Below are positions 3,454 to 15,011 of a DNA stretch of 64,000 nt, one piece after another; within the stretch, counting starts at the first letter, position 1, and the number at the start of each line of letters is the position of its first letter. The DNA comes from SAR324 cluster bacterium. Lineage in GTDB: Bacteria; SAR324; NAC60-12. The position numbers and the translations under genes were made by a program. Under the pieces are notes generated by a model. The model did no database searches. It worked only from the letters and a program-made list of their open reading frames with translations, and had not been told where the DNA came from. The stretch covers positions 124,001-188,000 of the forward strand of contig JADFZZ010000001.1 in the NCBI GenBank assembly GCA_015232315.1, read 5' to 3'.

Positions 3454-4497
3454 TTACGCCTCAAACCGGAACAATTCTTCGAGACTTTGAGCGGTCAGAA
3501 TACGCTCTGCCAGCGTTTCCAGTTGGGCGAAAGACAACGTACTCAGTTGAGTCAGGTAGATTGCTGGAATTTCACGGAATTTGATCCGCAATTGTTTTTC
3601 TACCGTTCTGCGAAGTCCTTTCTCAATGCCTTTCTCAATGCCTTTCTCAATGCCTTTCTCAATGCCTTTCTCAATGCCTTTCTCAATGCCTTCGGCTCTT
3701 CCTCTTTCAAATCCTTCATCAATCCATTGCTGGGCCATGGTGGGCATAACGACCTCCTCTAATAATTCCGGGTTCGGGAGTTTGTGAAATTCTTCAATGA
3801 ATGAATCCTTCTCCAGATTCGGAGAGGCTTTGAACAGATAATACAACAACGTTTCCAGATATTCCAGTCCGGTTTTGCTACGGGAATAGTCCCACAACAT
3901 GGGAAACAGCGTGCCGAATAGAAACCGTGGCAAATCATGGTCATCAATGTGTTTCATCATCAGCATCGCGGTTTTGACCAGCACATCGCCCCGGATGGCT
4001 TCATCCGGAATGTGGGACAGATCCAGCAGGGCGTAGTGGAATTGCGGAACATAGGCTTTGAGCGCGGGGTGAACCTGAAAATACTCATGAAAACTCAAGG
4101 GCGTATTCCAGCCAGCGTGTCCCTGATACACGACCATCGGAAACACGGGCGGAAGAGGACTGTCCGGCTTCTGTTTGCGGAAGTTTTTCCAGCAACCGAC
4201 CATGTACTCCAGAATCCGGAACGGCATGTCGGCATCGGGTTGGCGTTGATGTTCCAGATGCAACAGAATCCAGCCGGTTTGATCTTCCGCCAGAGTCACC
4301 TCATACAAAATATCAGTCCGGCGGTTTTTAAGGGTTTTGTCCACGAATTCCCCAGACACCAGTTTCAAGGTGCTCCAATCCATCAGGGCCGCCACTTCGG
4401 CGGGCAGATTGTGGCGGAAAAATTCCTGCGCGAAATTCAGACTGCTGAACTGCGTGAGGAAAAAATCATTGTGGGGATTGCCCTGTTTTTTGGCCAT
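3454..4497 (-). CDS. Rpn-family (transposase_31-like) nuclease-fold protein
   Basis: 347 residues. The N terminus (HNDFFLTQFSSLNFAQEFFRHNLP), then RRTDILYEV and ILLHLEHQRQPDADMPFRIL, is typical of the Rpn/YhgA-like family (PF04754), PD-(D/E)XK-fold proteins linked in E. coli to RecA-independent recombination and DNA cleavage. RTDILYE and the E in LHLEHQ are the likely D and E of the active site. The C-terminal part has six consecutive IEKG tetrapeptides, encoded by perfect 12-bp DNA repeats, then a helical tail. The gene stands alone with no transposon ends and is probably a nuclease-like accessory gene; its biological role is unknown. Confidence 0.85.
   Translation of the reverse strand: MAKKQGNPHNDFFLTQFSSLNFAQEFFRHNLPAEVAALMDWSTLKLVSGEFVDKTLKNRRTDILYEVTLAEDQTGWILLHLEHQRQPDADMPFRILEYMVGCWKNFRKQKPDSPLPPVFPMVVYQGHAGWNTPLSFHEYFQVHPALKAYVPQFHYALLDLSHIPDEAIRGDVLVKTAMLMMKHIDDHDLPRFLFGTLFPMLWDYSRSKTGLEYLETLLYYLFKASPNLEKDSFIEEFHKLPNPELLEEVVMPTMAQQWIDEGFERGRAEGIEKGIEKGIEKGIEKGIEKGIEKGLRRTVEKQLRIKFREIPAIYLTQLSTLSFAQLETLAERILTAQSLEELFRFEA
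3618..3689 (-). repeat. 12-bp tandem repeat, six units, inside the Rpn-like gene
   Basis: Six identical copies of ctttctcaatgc head to tail, each encoding IEKG in a predicted charged helix. Gain or loss of units would keep the reading frame and change only the helix length. Confidence 0.95.
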
Positions 4498-4814
4498 AAC
4501 GCAAGATTCTTACATGGTGGGTGAACGCTGGACGAGATCATAATAAGGCCGGACTTGTAACCCGCCTATTCCTGAGAGTAAAGCGGGATTTGCGGGCAGG
4601 GCTGTTAAGTTCTCATGAGATGGACTGGATTCCAGTCTGCGCGGGAACGACAGCAAAGTGTCAGCTACTTTTGAAAGGTGCCGGATTTTTCCTGATTTTT
4701 TAAACCGCCCTGACGGGCGGTGCTCCGATCTCAACAACCCGTTTCCCTCACTAACATCAAACCGTGCCATTCAACAACCCGTGGAACAAATAACCAAAGC
4801 GCCAAAGCACCGAC
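4498..4814. other. Intergenic region with a degraded dispersed repeat
   Basis: No convincing gene. Around 4621-4652 lies the motif GGATTCCAGTCTGCGCGGGA, followed by ACGACA, a form of the dispersed repeat whose translation often shows PRRLESSP. A minus-strand reading frame of 86 residues across the region is a translation of that repeat and is not believed to be a gene. From about 4763 to 4814 the sequence resembles the coding DNA downstream of the first variable domain of the next gene (see findings). Confidence 0.6.
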
Positions 4815-7322
4815 TCACCCGCCTCCACGAACGCACCGGACATAGGAGGTATCGTACTTATTGACGCTGACCACGCTGCCGTCGAGGAAGCTCACGTCCC
4901 ACGCGTAGCTCGAATGGCCGGCGGACGACGTCGAAGACCAATAGTTCGAGGACTTCATATTAGGGAAACTCGTCGCCGGTTTAAACCGTTTTCGGTCAAG
5001 CAGAAATTCCAGTTCTTTCACCGCGGGTAAACGCCAGTCTTCATAGCCGCCCAGACGCAGACCCTCACAATAACTCACAGCGGCATTCCAGGTTTTCTCT
5101 CCCCCATCCGCCTTCTGCCACTCCAGCCCGGTTTGACGGTCAACAACGGTCTGGCCCCGCTCCAAATAATCAAAGCGCCGAAGCACCGATTCACCGCCTC
5201 CACGAACGCACCGGACATAGTAGGTAACGGACTTACTGCTGCTGTTCAAGTTGCCGTAGCTGAAGTACACGGTCCATGCTCTGCCCGAATCGTAGGCGGG
5301 CGACGACGAAGACCAATAGAACGAAGACTTCATATTAGGGAAACTCGTCGCCGGGTTGTATTTCCCGTAATCCACAAGGGTCAGCAGTTCTTCAGGCGTC
5401 GGCAAGCGCCAGTCCGTCTGACCGCTCGCGGAAAGGCTGTCGCAATAACTCACGGCATCGTTCCAGGTTAGTGCGCCGCCATCGTCTGTCTGCCACACCA
5501 GACCTCCAGCCATCTTGAGTCCTTCCTCCATCCTGATTTCGATTTCCAGACTTTGTTGATCTTTGACCGTGAGAGTTTGCGTGCCTTCCTTGTCCGCGGA
5601 ACGGACGGTGATTTCATGAGACCCGGCGGACAGTTTCAGCACAGCGGGGGCTTCTCCCATGTCCTGCCCATCCACAAGGATTCTGGTTCCATCTTCAAAG
5701 GGGGTGGCCGTGATCGTTACGGTGCCTTCCAGTTTCCGGAGGGTGGCTGTCGTTCCGCGGATCGTTTGTTGTTGTCCGCGGGCGACATTGAGTTTGAATT
5801 CCAGCGAGGCATAACCCGTTTTTTCCAGAAGCAGGCGGTACTCTCCCGGTTCCAGTTTCAGGGTCGCCGGGCTGGTTTCTGTCAGAAGCGGGGATTCTTC
5901 TCCTCCCCTGTTCACGGGGGAGGCCGGGTGGGGGTAAACCTTGATCGCGGCTCCGGCAGGAAGGCTTTCCACCAGGGTTTCGCCGAAATTGGGTTCCAGT
6001 TTCAGCTTCAAGGGCAGGGTTCCGCCATCCCTGATTTCAACACTCTGGTTTTCAAGCGGCAGATACAGGGGTTTTCTGAGGCTCATCAGGTAGGTTCCGG
6101 ACAGGACATGGTCGTTGCTGTAAGGGGTTTCTCCCACTTTCTCATCCGCCAGATAAACTTCGGCTCCCGGGGGATCGCTGGTGATTTGCAGACTGCCGAA
6201 GCGGGGGATCAGTTTGAGGTTGGTGAATTTGTTGGTGCCGCCACTGAGAGGCAGTTCCAGGGTTTTGTCATGGTAGTCCGGTTTTTTCAGTGTGACCCGC
6301 AAGGTTTGACCCGCTTGCAGTCCGGTTTTCTGATACGGGGTTTTGCCCGCTTTGGCGTTGCCCAGAAACACTTCCGCCGCTGACGGAATACTGGTGATGA
6401 CCAGGATCGCCATGGAAGAAGCGGTGTTTCCACTCACCTGAGGGGTGATCAACTCCACTCCGCTCACCCCTGCGCTGACGGGTCCCACGCTCACAAACGC
6501 CGCTCTGCCGCTTCCTGTTTTCTTTCCCGCCAGCAAAGCCGCCAGTTCTTCCAGACGCGGATTGATCGTGTCCGGATTTCCATCGTGCTCCACAAACTCG
6601 GTGGTACTGCTACCTTTTTCAATATCATGCAGGGTGGCTGAAAACTGGTATTTTTTCTCTCCCAGTTTCAGGCGCTGGGTCGCGACGACATGCGTCATCT
6701 TGTTTTCCTTGCCGACCTCGATGGCGCATTTATCCAGGGTGCATCCCACTTCCTTCAGAGACTCGATCTTCTTCTGGTCGGTATCCGCCGTGCTGGAGAG
6801 CTTAAACCCCTGATTGCTCAGCGCGGAACGGAACACCCGGCTATAAGCGGTTTTCTGAGCTGGTGTCCATTCTGTGGAATCAATATCAAACACCCCCATC
6901 AGCATGGTTTGCTGGGTATCGGTTTCATACTCCGCTTTCATCTGTATGATGATTTTTTTATCCAGGCCCTGGAGTACTCTGGTCTGGAGGACAATCATTT
7001 TGCCCTTGGGTTCATACGCCACATCCAGCCACAGCACATTGTACGAAGTCCCGGCGATTCCCGCGTCACGAGCGTCCATGAGCCTGGCGTTGCGAAACTG
7101 GTTACGCAGAGCGATGAACAGTTCTCCTGAAATATCGCCTGCCTTGCTGTCCTCTTTTTTGGTCAGGTAGTGATACACATTCACCACCAGATCTTCCTTG
7201 GTATCGGTTTTGAGTTTGGTAGTAAGCTGACGAGCGAGTTCCTCCGAGGCCTCTTTCATGGTGTTGGCGTGAACTGGCAACGTGATGAACAGCAGCAGAA
7301 GCAGGGAAAGTAGAGGTTTCAT
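4815..7322 (-). CDS. Secreted PEGA-repeat protein with two variable DUF1566 lectin-like domains (putative DGR target)
   Basis: About 835 residues. A signal peptide (MKPLLSLLLLLFITLPVHA) favours the ATG at 7322 over the longer frame. Residues ~25-270 resemble CsgG/TolB-like or FlgO-like exported domains (GCTLDKCAIEVGKENKMTHVV). About four PEGA-type beta domains follow (~305-600; e.g. ITSDPPGAEVYLADEKVGETPY), a fold common in surface proteins. Two DUF1566 (Lcl C-terminal, C-type-lectin-like) domains end the protein (~604-710 and ~728-835), each with TWNxAVSYC, DWRLP and TSFPNMKSS...YVRCVRGG. Within each domain a 36-codon tract differs almost only at codon positions 1 and 2, a DGR mark. DUF1566 proteins are known DGR targets. 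It follows a TlpA-like gene after 86 bases and probably shares its transcript. The ligand is unknown. Confidence 0.88.
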   Translation of the reverse strand: MKPLLSLLLLLFITLPVHANTMKEASEELARQLTTKLKTDTKEDLVVNVYHYLTKKEDSKAGDISGELFIALRNQFRNARLMDARDAGIAGTSYNVLWLDVAYEPKGKMIVLQTRVLQGLDKKIIIQMKAEYETDTQQTMLMGVFDIDSTEWTPAQKTAYSRVFRSALSNQGFKLSSTADTDQKKIESLKEVGCTLDKCAIEVGKENKMTHVVATQRLKLGEKKYQFSATLHDIEKGSSTTEFVEHDGNPDTINPRLEELAALLAGKKTGSGRAAFVSVGPVSAGVSGVELITPQVSGNTASSMAILVITSIPSAAEVFLGNAKAGKTPYQKTGLQAGQTLRVTLKKPDYHDKTLELPLSGGTNKFTNLKLIPRFGSLQITSDPPGAEVYLADEKVGETPYSNDHVLSGTYLMSLRKPLYLPLENQSVEIRDGGTLPLKLKLEPNFGETLVESLPAGAAIKVYPHPASPVNRGGEESPLLTETSPATLKLEPGEYRLLLEKTGYASLEFKLNVARGQQQTIRGTTATLRKLEGTVTITATPFEDGTRILVDGQDMGEAPAVLKLSAGSHEITVRSADKEGTQTLTVKDQQSLEIEIRMEEGLKMAGGLVWQTDDGGALTWNDAVSYCDSLSASGQTDWRLPTPEELLTLVDYGKYNPATSFPNMKSSFYWSSSSPAYDSGRAWTVYFSYGNLNSSSKSVTYYVRCVRGGGESVLRRFDYLERGQTVVDRQTGLEWQKADGGEKTWNAAVSYCEGLRLGGYEDWRLPAVKELEFLLDRKRFKPATSFPNMKSSNYWSSTSSAGHSSYAWDVSFLDGSVVSVNKYDTSYVRCVRGGG
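4845..4952 (-). other. Putative DGR variable region 2 (C-terminal domain)
   Basis: Thirty-six codons (residues ~791-826). Flanked upstream in coding sense by 27 bases and downstream by 25 bases identical to variable region 1, yet differing from it at 30 of 108 positions: 14 first-codon, 13 second-codon and 3 third-codon bases. Invariant codons (TGG, TTC, GTG, AAG) form the expected lectin scaffold. Confidence 0.8.
5220..5327 (-). other. Putative DGR variable region 1 (internal domain)
   Basis: Counterpart of variable region 2, exactly 375 bases away (residues ~666-701). Of 19 codons differing at position 1 or 2 between the copies, 16 end in C or T in both, as expected if the template codons were AAC or AAT. 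The conserved tail TATGTCCGGTGCGTTCGTGG in both copies would be the place to look for an initiation-of-mutagenic-homology site. Confidence 0.8.
5896..5935 (-). repeat. Dispersed repeat inserted in frame in the third PEGA domain
   Basis: GC-rich segment with arms CCTCCCC...GGGGGAGG that encodes PHPASPVNRGGEES in the third PEGA-like domain. The peptide is absent from the other PEGA copies and resembles the translation of a common short dispersed bacterial repeat. It lengthens a loop without breaking the frame. Confidence 0.5.
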
Positions 7323-7347
7323 GGAGGGTTTCCGGTTCGAGGTTAAC

Positions 7348-7375
7348 GTAGGGGCGAAAGATGTTTCGCCCGTAC
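7348..7375. repeat. GTAG-bounded palindrome (REP-like)
   Basis: 28-base imperfect palindrome GTAGGGGCGAAA / gatg / TTTCGCCCGTAC in the gap between the TlpA-like gene and the DGR-target gene. The GTAG edge and stem-loop match the general form of REP sequences mobilised by TnpA-REP proteins. Confidence 0.6.
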
Positions 7376-7408
7376 TGAGGTCAGAGGTTAAAGAACAGAG
7401 GTTTATGT

Positions 7409-7972
7409 TCAAGGATTCTTCAATAATTCCGAGATTCGGGTTTTGAGCTTTTCTTCAAGATGGTCCTCAAAGCCGGTGATGACCTCCGCGATTTTCCCGG
7501 CACGGTCAATCATCACGATTCGGGGCAGGGCATCGGCTCCATAGGCTTCGACCGCGTATTCCCGTTGCGGCAACAACACAGGAACCCTCAGATTGTATTT
7601 GGCGATCATTTTTTTGACAGTAGCCTGAGTGATTTCCTGATCCACATTCACATACAGGAACTTCACAGGCTGGTCTTTCATGCTTTGAGCCAGCCGGTTG
7701 AAGGCGGGAATCTCCCGAATACAGGGAACGCACCAGGTCGCGAAAAAATTGAGCACCACCACATTGCGTTGTCTCAGGGCAAGGTACTTGTCGCCCTGTT
7801 CCACAAATTTGAGTTCTTCCAGCAAATCACTCACTTTGAGTTTTCCGGGTTCCGGCGCTAATTCCCCGGATAAGTCAGGAGCCTCCCTGCCCACCAGGTC
7901 TTCCGCGTAAAGCGTAGGTGACATAAGGCACTGGACGAGCAGGCACGCTAACAAGAAGGCTTTCAGGTTCAT
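7409..7972 (-). CDS. TlpA/ResA-like periplasmic thioredoxin
   Basis: 187 residues with a signal peptide (MNLKAFLLACLLVQCLMSP...YA), placing it in the periplasm. The thioredoxin fold has VVVLNFFATWCVPCIREIP with redox CxxC at residues 81-84, and ALPRIVMIDRAGKI containing the cis-proline loop. Such proteins reduce disulfides in exported or cytochrome-c maturation proteins. It lies just upstream of the secreted variable-lectin gene in the same direction, so it could help that protein fold (inference), though the pairing may be incidental. Confidence 0.88.
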   Translation of the reverse strand: MNLKAFLLACLLVQCLMSPTLYAEDLVGREAPDLSGELAPEPGKLKVSDLLEELKFVEQGDKYLALRQRNVVVLNFFATWCVPCIREIPAFNRLAQSMKDQPVKFLYVNVDQEITQATVKKMIAKYNLRVPVLLPQREYAVEAYGADALPRIVMIDRAGKIAEVITGFEDHLEEKLKTRISELLKNP

Positions 7973-12275: not shown

Positions 12276-15011
12276 ATGGCTGAAGTTAGCAAAAAAGAAC
12301 GTCAGGAACAAATGCTTCGTCAATTCGCACGAATTGACAAGTTTTTGCAGGCAAACTCAAAAAAGTTCTATCAGGAATATGACACGTTCAATGAGTTTCT
12401 GGTGGAAACACGACTGCACATTCTGGAACAGGCTGAGCACCTGCAACGTGAACATAATGAGGAACTGACTGAAGAAATGCGGGATGTGTTGTCCATTGAC
12501 GCGGAAGATGGCATTGCCAACAGACTCAACATGATGACGCTGATTCTTGCGAGAATGGCAAACCCGCCCCTGTTCAATTTTTTAATTCAGCACAAACTCA
12601 ATGTAAAAAACATTGAGAATCTGTCGTTTCAGCAAATTCCTCTGGAAGTGGATACTCTCCTGTTTATCACCAATCCGTTGTTGGCCTTTGATCTGGTGTT
12701 TGATCTGCTGGAGTTCCGGAACAGGCACAATCGTTTCGTGCATCTTTACATCACCAATCGTATCGCACGCTGGTTGTTTCGATTTACCCAGTTTGTGATC
12801 AACTATGACCAGTTTGACAAGGTCATTCACCTGACCTTGCTTCAACCCGCGCGGTTTGATGCTTACAAGGACAAATTTGTCAAATCAGTCCATTTTCTGG
12901 CCGCGGAAGCCCTGGATCATATTCTCAATGATAAAAAATCCATTTATGTGAATGATCTCCGACGTCTTTATCTGATATTGAGCCGAACCCTGTTTATTGC
13001 GGCACGTTCAGGTCAAACAATAGCGCCAGAGATTCTGGAAATGCTGACAGATCTGATTCCGATCATGGACATGGATCCTGAACAGTTGAAAGAAGACGGT
13101 TTTTATGCGGAGTATCAGGAAATTCATTTTATGAATCCGCAAAAAGTTTTTTTGCAGCAATTCACAGAATTACAAAAGCAGGATGTCGATCATGTTCTGG
13201 TTTTTCTGGGTTCGATTCACCCCGTGGACCGTAATCAGATTCTGCAAATGGTCTATGATCGCACCCGTTTGTATCCACTCAAATTGTTTGCGTCGATCAA
13301 AAAGCATTATCAGCAAAATGATGGAGTGATTCCGGTTTATTATAAAATGGTCGCTGAAAGCCTGCGTCAGATTGTGGATTATCATTCTGTCAAGAATGGG
13401 GGAATGGTCCGCAAGGAAATTTATGAACCGTTGTTTTTTCAGGAACATCTTTCTCTTGCGGATCACAAGATTGAGGCACCTTCAGACGAATTGCTGCACA
13501 AACCGCAGGAATGGCTGACTCCCGGGCAGATTTTTGAAGTGTTCCACAAAGCCGGTGCGGGAGATGATAAAAAAATGCTGTTTGATCTTGCCAGCCTTCC
13601 CTTCTGCTACATCATGATTGAATTCGGGCGTCCATCTTACCACACATTCTCGCTCATTCATCTGTTTATTCTGGACCTTCAGCCTAAAACCTACCGGGAT
13701 ATTCTAGGGTATCTTGCGGGATCACTGCAAATGGATTCACGGGAGTTGGATGTTTGCCTGAAACAAATCAAGGCCTTGAGCGATTTCACTCAGGATCTGG
13801 TAATTAGAAACAAGATCCGGCGCAAACGAATCAAGATGTATGACTCTAAAAATCAGTTGAGGTTCTATGATTTTAATGCCGCGCTGGTTGAAATAAATGA
13901 TGAACTGGAAGCACGCTATCCACAAATTCTGTTCAGATTTGAATACAGAAAAATGCTGATGGAGTTTCTGGAAGAATCCAAACGTTGGTTGGCTATCAAG
14001 AAAGGTCAGACGGTTCAGGCACTTACCGCTGATGATATGCATAAACTGCTTTCAGGTAAGGAATGGCCGCTGGTGGTTAAAGCGCTGAAGGATTCTGTGA
14101 TTGGCCGGGTGTATTCCGAAAAGTACCAGGCTTTGATGGACAATGAGGATAAACTGCGAAAAGAACTGCTGGAGATTCATGGGCTTCAGCAACAGGTCGT
14201 TGATTATGAGAAACTGAGACAACTGGCCACCGATGAAAATAAGGAGAAATCCCGGATTTCAACAGAAACAGTCAAGCAGAGGCTGGCAATATATGATGTC
14301 AAAACCCAATCATTTGAAGTCATGTCCCAAAATCCCACCCAGAAAGAACCATGGTTTGTTGAATGGGGACGAACACCTCTGCGTTTTATGACACCACCAC
14401 AGGTGAATCCACAAATCACCATTTTTACATGGTTTGATATGGCTGTTCTCAACATAGACGGTCAGACAAGGAATACGCTCATCAGTTATTTGCAGAATAC
14501 TCAGCAACTGGATGAAACTGAAGTGGCCATTTTAAAGCAGAATATGGTTCAGTTCTGGATGCTTCTCAAACGTCTGACCGGAAATATAGAATGGAAACAA
14601 CAGCCACAACTCTGGAAACAGAACAACGGCCATATTGATTATTCCCTGATGCTGAAATTGCTGGGTCAGATTCATGAACCCTTAGCCTCCCAAATGCCAC
14701 AGATGACAGAACACAGGAATGATGTTCAGGCCCATTTGACCTGTCTGCATGAAATTCAGAAAAATCTCATAAAAAACGGGGCCTCCACGCCATACGGTGT
14801 GTTGTTCACCCAGAAAATGATGACGGCGCTGGCTTCTTCAGATGACCCGACCAAGGCCTTGTCTGTGATGAAACAGTCAGAAAAAAATGCCGGTCATATG
14901 AAATATCTGGCTTATGCCTCCAACACACCGGATATCTTCCGGGAGCGTCTCAAAATTGAATATCAAATCAATTACAGGATCGTGAAGTATTTTCAGCAGA
15001 ACCAGGATTGA
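12276..15011 (+). CDS. Large cytoplasmic helical protein of unknown function
   Basis: 911 residues, highly charged and largely helical, without signal peptide or membrane segment. It starts MAVEVSKKERQE-like (MAEVSKKERQEQMLRQFARI), and a clear coiled-coil section occurs near residues 640-670 (LMDNEDKLRKELLEIHGLQQ). No enzyme motif was recognised. It is followed after 15 bases by a membrane-protein gene and then infA, suggesting a shared transcript. It resembles in style the 515-residue protein at 61822 and the 753-residue protein at 8170: large, helical and apparently lineage-specific. I do not recognise the family. Confidence 0.8.
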   Translation: MAEVSKKERQEQMLRQFARIDKFLQANSKKFYQEYDTFNEFLVETRLHILEQAEHLQREHNEELTEEMRDVLSIDAEDGIANRLNMMTLILARMANPPLFNFLIQHKLNVKNIENLSFQQIPLEVDTLLFITNPLLAFDLVFDLLEFRNRHNRFVHLYITNRIARWLFRFTQFVINYDQFDKVIHLTLLQPARFDAYKDKFVKSVHFLAAEALDHILNDKKSIYVNDLRRLYLILSRTLFIAARSGQTIAPEILEMLTDLIPIMDMDPEQLKEDGFYAEYQEIHFMNPQKVFLQQFTELQKQDVDHVLVFLGSIHPVDRNQILQMVYDRTRLYPLKLFASIKKHYQQNDGVIPVYYKMVAESLRQIVDYHSVKNGGMVRKEIYEPLFFQEHLSLADHKIEAPSDELLHKPQEWLTPGQIFEVFHKAGAGDDKKMLFDLASLPFCYIMIEFGRPSYHTFSLIHLFILDLQPKTYRDILGYLAGSLQMDSRELDVCLKQIKALSDFTQDLVIRNKIRRKRIKMYDSKNQLRFYDFNAALVEINDELEARYPQILFRFEYRKMLMEFLEESKRWLAIKKGQTVQALTADDMHKLLSGKEWPLVVKALKDSVIGRVYSEKYQALMDNEDKLRKELLEIHGLQQQVVDYEKLRQLATDENKEKSRISTETVKQRLAIYDVKTQSFEVMSQNPTQKEPWFVEWGRTPLRFMTPPQVNPQITIFTWFDMAVLNIDGQTRNTLISYLQNTQQLDETEVAILKQNMVQFWMLLKRLTGNIEWKQQPQLWKQNNGHIDYSLMLKLLGQIHEPLASQMPQMTEHRNDVQAHLTCLHEIQKNLIKNGASTPYGVLFTQKMMTALASSDDPTKALSVMKQSEKNAGHMKYLAYASNTPDIFRERLKIEYQINYRIVKYFQQNQD

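What the first reader, a model, noticed from the sequence alone, without database searches (positions are those of the whole stretch)
4845..5327. Two diversity-generating-retroelement-like variable regions in one secreted protein
Seen: two 108-base tracts exactly 375 bases apart lie between flanks identical over 27 bases on one side and 25 on the other. Inside, they differ at 30 positions: 14 first-codon, 13 second-codon and only 3 third-codon bases. Ordinary divergence would favour third positions. Of 19 codons with such changes, 16 end in C or T in both copies, as expected from AAC/AAT template codons mutated at adenines. Known: DUF1566/C-type-lectin domains are recurrent DGR targets and the variable residues line the ligand site. 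Inference: both domains are (or were) diversified by the same DGR, giving a two-headed variable surface lectin on a PEGA stalk.
Basis: partly seen in the sequence, partly recalled or inferred. Interest (0 to 1): 0.92.

Follow-up and report, generated by a model that had tools for sequence, protein, structure and literature searches.

The report
Two-headed DGR lectin, retroelement broken
A secreted protein from a bacterium of the Lambdaproteobacteria/SAR324 kind ends in two copies of a lectin-like domain, both of which carry the mark of a diversity-generating retroelement (a targeted mutation machine), while that machine survives in this genome only as broken pieces, so the variety is either frozen or written by an enzyme not in the assembly.

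Summary
The two tracts differ at 30 sites (14/13/3 by codon position); the rest of the same two domains shows the ordinary third-position pattern (12/11/21). The genome has three more variable regions (VRs) built on the same constants. A relative of the same class (Candidatus Lambdaproteobacteria RIFOXYD2_FULL_56_26) has a complete DGR: target1, MutS-like, Avd, TR, RT fused to MutS_I, target2. Its TR is A at 22 of the 30 window sites, against 22 of 99 invariant sites (p=6e-7). A 33-bp element follows all five window-type VRs and both VRs of a Desulfocapsa DGR, but not the TR; in the window protein the first copy has become the coding linker between the two heads.

No reverse transcriptase is found in this genome (95% complete). 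One contig keeps a TR 3' end and the first ~13 and last ~45 codons of the RT, its middle deleted. So the VRs are DGR-written, but their own cassette is broken; present activity is unproven. A two-VR protein in the relative is a fusion of target1-type and target2-type domains. Multi-VR targets and RT-less loci diversified in trans are already published (Thiohalocapsa). New variant of a known kind.

The parts
4815..7322 (-). Two-headed target gene: signal-peptide-like start, N-terminal module without a clear Pfam match, PEGA domains, two C-terminal Lcl_C domains (longest ORF 4815-7412 from TTG)
5991..6197 (-). Best-scoring PEGA domain stretch (3 stretches in the protein)
   Evidence: Pfam PF08308, E 3.2e-32
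5202..5504 (-). Lcl_C domain 1
   Evidence: PF07603, E 2.3e-29
4827..5153 (-). Lcl_C domain 2
   Evidence: PF07603, E 9.0e-31
5221..5328 (-). Variable region 1 (VR1)
4846..4953 (-). Variable region 2 (VR2)
5194..5220 (-). Constant 3' end of VR1 (IMH-like, TATGTCCGGTGCGTTCGTGGAGG)
   Evidence: identical in both copies; shared with the other three VRs
4819..4845 (-). Constant 3' end of VR2 (IMH-like)
5161..5193 (-). Post-VR element of VR1, here read as protein linker (ESVLRRFDYLE), 27/33 identical to the Desulfocapsa element
4785..4817 (-). Post-VR element of VR2, beginning at the stop codon, 30/33 identical to the Desulfocapsa element
5326..5354 (-). 5' flank of VR1, identical to that of VR2 but not shared by the other three VRs
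4951..4979 (-). 5' flank of VR2, identical to that of VR1

Best explanation
The gene is a target of a diversity-generating retroelement. Its two C-terminal lectin-like domains each received, at least once, an adenine-mutagenised cDNA copy of one template repeat, which replaced about 110 bp at the 3' end of each domain. The writing machine was a cassette of the kind intact in Ca. Lambdaproteobacteria RIFOXYD2_FULL_56_26 and Desulfocapsa IMS_BF-2: target1, (MutS-like protein in the former), Avd, TR, RT fused to MutS_I, target2. In this genome the only recognisable cassette (contig C38) has lost its RT catalytic core and most of its TR, so the VRs are now either frozen or rewritten in trans by an RT not in the assembly. 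The protein is exported and most likely displays two variable binding heads on a PEGA stalk. Shown: the mutation pattern, shared constants, related intact cassettes, the broken cassette, domain content. Inferred: retrohoming into both heads, cell-surface binding, current inactivity.
For: Codon-position pattern against internal control. Five VRs in the genome share constants; 38 of 45 variable columns hold an A, 7 of 81 invariant columns are A. Independent TR of the relative: A at 22/30 variable and 22/99 invariant sites for the window pair (p=5.6e-7); 33/48 against 11/81 for all five VRs (p=2e-10). That TR differs from its own two cassette VRs at 19 and 16 adenines and at no other base in 80 bp. 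Own TR remnant at C38 has A at all five of its adenine-type variable columns. RT remnants flank it: start MCGALVEESD against MSVASGRESD, and an RT-like C-terminus. The post-VR element sits behind all five VRs (26-30/33) and both Desulfocapsa VRs, against 11/33 behind the TR and at most 23/33 elsewhere in 122,018 positions. The four lysines whose mutation lowers glycosaminoglycan binding in Legionella Lcl fall on variable codons.
Against: No RVT_1, bAvd or complete TR in the assembly (the bAvd search had no ringing control, so it is weak). A few non-adenine changes (3 third-position changes of 30 in the pair; 8 of 45 variable columns at third positions over five VRs) mean drift, several templates, or no recent rewriting. 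W1 and W2 share a 29-bp 5' flank not found in the other VRs, which points to local copying as well. No population data.
Confidence: 0.88

Rival explanations
1. The DGR is alive: the RT, Avd and TR lie in the unassembled part of the genome or on an unbinned plasmid or phage and act in trans on all VRs, including the window pair. (A sub-case of the best explanation, set against a frozen, dead system.)
For: The assembly is 95% complete in 88 contigs. RT-less targets diversified in trans are published for Thiohalocapsa PB-PSB1 (PMC10907252). Relatives G041 (97% complete) and G042 (98%) also have VRs matching the Lambdaproteobacteria TR but no RVT_1 match.
Against: C38, the one cassette of this type, is visibly broken inside a contig and its target1 has an in-frame stop. 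Third-position changes have accumulated among the VRs. No match in viral or plasmid collections.
Confidence: 0.35
2. No DGR: tandem domain duplication and gene conversion of the flanks, plus strong positive selection on binding residues, produced the pattern.
For: W1 and W2 share a local 29-bp 5' flank that other VRs lack; amino-acid-changing sites would also be favoured by selection.
Against: Selection does not predict that variable sites are adenines in a distant template (p=6e-7), nor five tracts on three contigs with the same constants, a TR remnant and an RT remnant.
Confidence: 0.03
3. On origin: the two-headed protein arose by fusion of the two targets that flank a DGR cassette after the cassette between them was lost; both VRs kept the post-VR element and so stayed addressable.
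For: In G043 contig C62, domain 1 groups with target1 domains (95/91) and domain 2 with target2 domains (98/86). The VR1-VR2 linker of the window protein is the post-VR element that is non-coding behind other VRs. RT-less target1-target2 pairs occur at C38, G043 C61, G050 C217 and G041 C39.
Against: For the window protein itself the domain tree is unresolved. Tandem Lcl_C proteins are common in the phylum, so simple tandem duplication is possible.
Confidence: 0.4

Closest known systems
DGR target with several VRs in one gene, Thiohalocapsa PB-PSB1 DGR4 (PMC10907252)
   Same: one target gene with several VRs, RT and TR elsewhere, adenine-site variation, incomplete loci
   Different: there the VRs match a TR in the same genome and diversification was seen in metagenomes; other target architecture
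Complete DGR of Ca. Lambdaproteobacteria RIFOXYD2_FULL_56_26 (MFNF01000042; L064/L100)
   Same: Lcl_C targets, homologous VR constants, similar T-rich sequence behind the VRs
   Different: intact RT, Avd and TR; cassette targets with one VR each (but a two-VR protein on contig C62)
DGR of Desulfocapsa sp. IMS_BF-2 (DYDL01000164; L101)
   Same: Lcl_C targets on both sides of Avd, TR and RT::MutS_I; nearly identical post-VR element
   Different: intact; no two-VR protein seen on its 7-kb contig
Legionella Lcl C-terminal domain (PDB 8q4e, PMC11162425)
   Same: Lcl_C/DUF1566 by sequence (E 2e-8); ligand lysines at the DGR-variable positions
   Different: collagen-like stalk, trimer, binds glycosaminoglycans; no DGR link tested here
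DGRs with multiple VRs in the same ORF, survey of Yan et al. 2019 (PMC6642488)
   Same: reports 31 of 271 multi-VR DGRs with several VRs in one ORF
   Different: its main example is described as having few adenine changes and may be repeats of an adhesin

Membership tests
Diversity-generating retroelement target | VR differs from its own TR almost only at TR adenines | tested here: inconclusive
   No full TR in this genome. Against a relative's TR variable sites are adenine-rich (p=6e-7); own TR remnant fits at 5/5 adenine-type columns
Diversity-generating retroelement target | Several targets written from one template share constants | tested here: met
   five VRs on three contigs
Diversity-generating retroelement (intact element in this genome) | DGR-type reverse transcriptase (SQ motif) in the genome | tested here: not met
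   RVT_1 absent from the assembly; only a deleted RT remnant at C38. Met in relatives: G043 and Desulfocapsa
Diversity-generating retroelement (intact element in this genome) | Avd accessory protein | tested here: inconclusive
   bAvd search of own genome empty but without a ringing control; present in G043
Diversity-generating retroelement target | IMH at the 3' end of VR followed by a hairpin/cruciform | tested here: inconclusive
   constant 3' end and a conserved 33-bp post-VR element; no significant hairpin behind own VRs
Diversity-generating retroelement target | VR in a C-type-lectin-like or Ig-like scaffold | tested here: met
   Lcl_C by Pfam and PDB 8q4e by sequence, described as C-type-lectin-like in PMC11162425; own structure predictions were poor
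Diversity-generating retroelement target | Ongoing diversification in populations | not testable with these tools
   no reads or second strain held

The most novel reading that the evidence does not exclude
Loss of a DGR core between its two flanking target genes repeatedly creates satellite target pairs and, by read-through of the non-coding post-VR recognition element, fused two-headed targets that remain addressable in trans by any DGR of the same clade.
Probability: 0.3. Interest if true: 0.65.

Novelty: new variant of a known kind. Interest (0 to 1): 0.52.

Why it matters
It adds members of a DGR clade (RT fused to MutS_I, RT gene starting inside its template, Lcl_C targets) in poorly known Lambdaproteobacteria/SAR324. 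It gives a case in which the RT is deleted but the written targets persist, and a candidate 33-bp target-recognition element conserved between phyla that can be tested directly. It also offers a route by which multivalent variable receptors could form.

Tried and rejected
Exact VR patterns in viral and genome contigs: none (the tool warns that near-identical genomes may be left out). VR protein in viral contigs: none. VR DNA in phages and plasmids: none. One viral match to the post-VR element (L253) is in an unrelated phage region. A hairpin behind the own VRs, as in BPP-1: no significant fold. AlphaFold models of the pair and of one head had pLDDT 42 and 53, and the Foldseek search gave nothing significant. 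The idea that all tandem Lcl_C pairs are DGR targets was rejected: many in the phylum, and C4 and the first C2 domain here, lack the pattern. Two regular expressions for the domain tree failed before the third worked.

Full report
Observation. The two 108-base tracts at 4846-4953 and 5221-5328 lie 375 bases apart and differ at 30 sites, 14/13/3 by codon position. Nineteen codons have first- or second-position changes, and 16 of these end in C or T in both copies. The same offset just upstream, in the rest of the same two domains, gives 44 differences at 12/11/21, the ordinary pattern. The contrast is therefore internal to the gene and not a codon-usage effect.

What the gene is. The ORF is intact. 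Pfam finds PEGA domains and two Lcl_C (PF07603, DUF1566) domains at the C-terminus. By sequence the only solved structure matched is the Legionella Lcl C-terminal domain (8q4e, E 2e-8). In that protein, alanine mutants of K369, K380, K385 and K391 reduced binding to sulphated glycosaminoglycans (PMC11162425). All four positions fall on codons that differ between the two heads (p=0.04 for four of four), in line with variable residues lining a ligand face. Predicted structures were too poor to use.

More copies in the genome. A DNA search of the window's assembly (5.25 Mb, 88 contigs, 95% complete) found three more VRs with the same constants, two on C38 and one on C2. A second two-VR protein on C66 has the same style of variation on different constants, hence probably another template. 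Over the five VRs, variable columns are A-rich and invariant columns A-poor (38/45 with an A against 7/81 that are A).

The machine in relatives. Searching with a reconstructed template (A at every variable site) found a real template in genome G043, which is Ca. Lambdaproteobacteria bacterium RIFOXYD2_FULL_56_26. Its cassette is target1, MutS_I-like protein, bAvd, TR, RT fused to MutS_I, target2. TR and VRs there differ at 19 and 16 adenines and at no other base over 80 bp. The window's variable sites were defined without this template, yet it is A at 22 of 30 of them and at 22 of 99 invariant sites (p=5.6e-7). A Desulfocapsa MAG has a cassette of the same order, with Avd, TR, a similar RT with a MutS-like C-terminus, and Lcl_C targets on both sides.

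The machine in this genome. No RVT_1 match exists, and the complete template is absent. On C38, between two VR-bearing genes, lies a template 3' end with A at all five adenine-type columns it covers, differing from the VRs at two sites in the IMH-like part. It runs straight into the first codons of an RT (MCGALVEESD; G043 has MSVASGRESD, which also starts inside the template) and then into an RT-like C-terminus, so about 450 codons are missing. The translated search score of that C-terminus alone is not significant (E 0.2); its position and the alignment carry the claim. Target1 there has an in-frame stop. This is a decayed cassette.

The post-VR element. All five VRs are followed by a version of TGAGTCGGTAATTTGGCGCTTTGATTATTTGTT, 26 to 30 of 33 bases identical to a Desulfocapsa copy; the Desulfocapsa template lacks it (11/33), and the best unrelated match in 122,018 positions is 23. 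It forms no clear hairpin, unlike BPP-1, where a hairpin behind the VR is required (PMC3240598). I infer that it is the target-recognition signal. Behind VR1 in the window it is in frame and has become the linker between the two heads, which suggests that VR1 once ended a gene.

Origin of two heads. In G043 a two-VR fused protein (C62) has domain 1 among target1 domains and domain 2 among target2 domains. RT-less target1-target2 pairs with MutS-like or RT leftovers occur at G043 C61 and G050 C217, and a pair without RT at G041 C39. So fusion of flanking targets is a good guess, but the tree does not resolve the window's own domains.

Known or new. Targets with several VRs, remote targets and broken loci written in trans are published for Thiohalocapsa (PMC10907252), and several VRs in one ORF were counted in a survey (PMC6642488). 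In 80 RT-centred loci scanned here I saw no ORF with two VRs, so the arrangement looks uncommon near RTs; the scan was not exhaustive. I rate it a new variant of a known kind.

Noticed in passing
G000 C66, L062:400-3207: A second two-headed Lcl_C protein with DGR-like variation on other constants, suggesting a second template; no template found in the assembly.
   Followed up: partly
G041 (97% complete): L223, L236: Five VRs matching the Lambdaproteobacteria TR (two checked: 2-3 non-adenine mismatches of 77) but no RVT_1 match in the genome.
   Followed up: partly
G000 C38, L061 about 7645-7815: Repeats of about 48 bp (CGAACGCCGGTAGCGTCGGGTTACGTCCCGACGTTTTGTGGAATGATC) lie where the 5' part of the template should be.
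   Followed up: no
G000 C40, L251 about 1740-1760: mutS appears to be split into two frames; real or assembly error unknown.
   Followed up: no
L064:13635-15617, L065:3732-5114, L062:5172-6830, L236: Proteins with an N-terminal module that looks like that of the window protein lie beside, or are fused to, Lcl_C DGR targets in several genomes.
   Followed up: partly
window 3615-3700: Short tandem repeat (CCTTTCTCAATG-like units) inside a YhgA-like Transposase_31 gene.
   Followed up: no
window 12276-15011: 911-aa ORF without any Pfam match.
   Followed up: no
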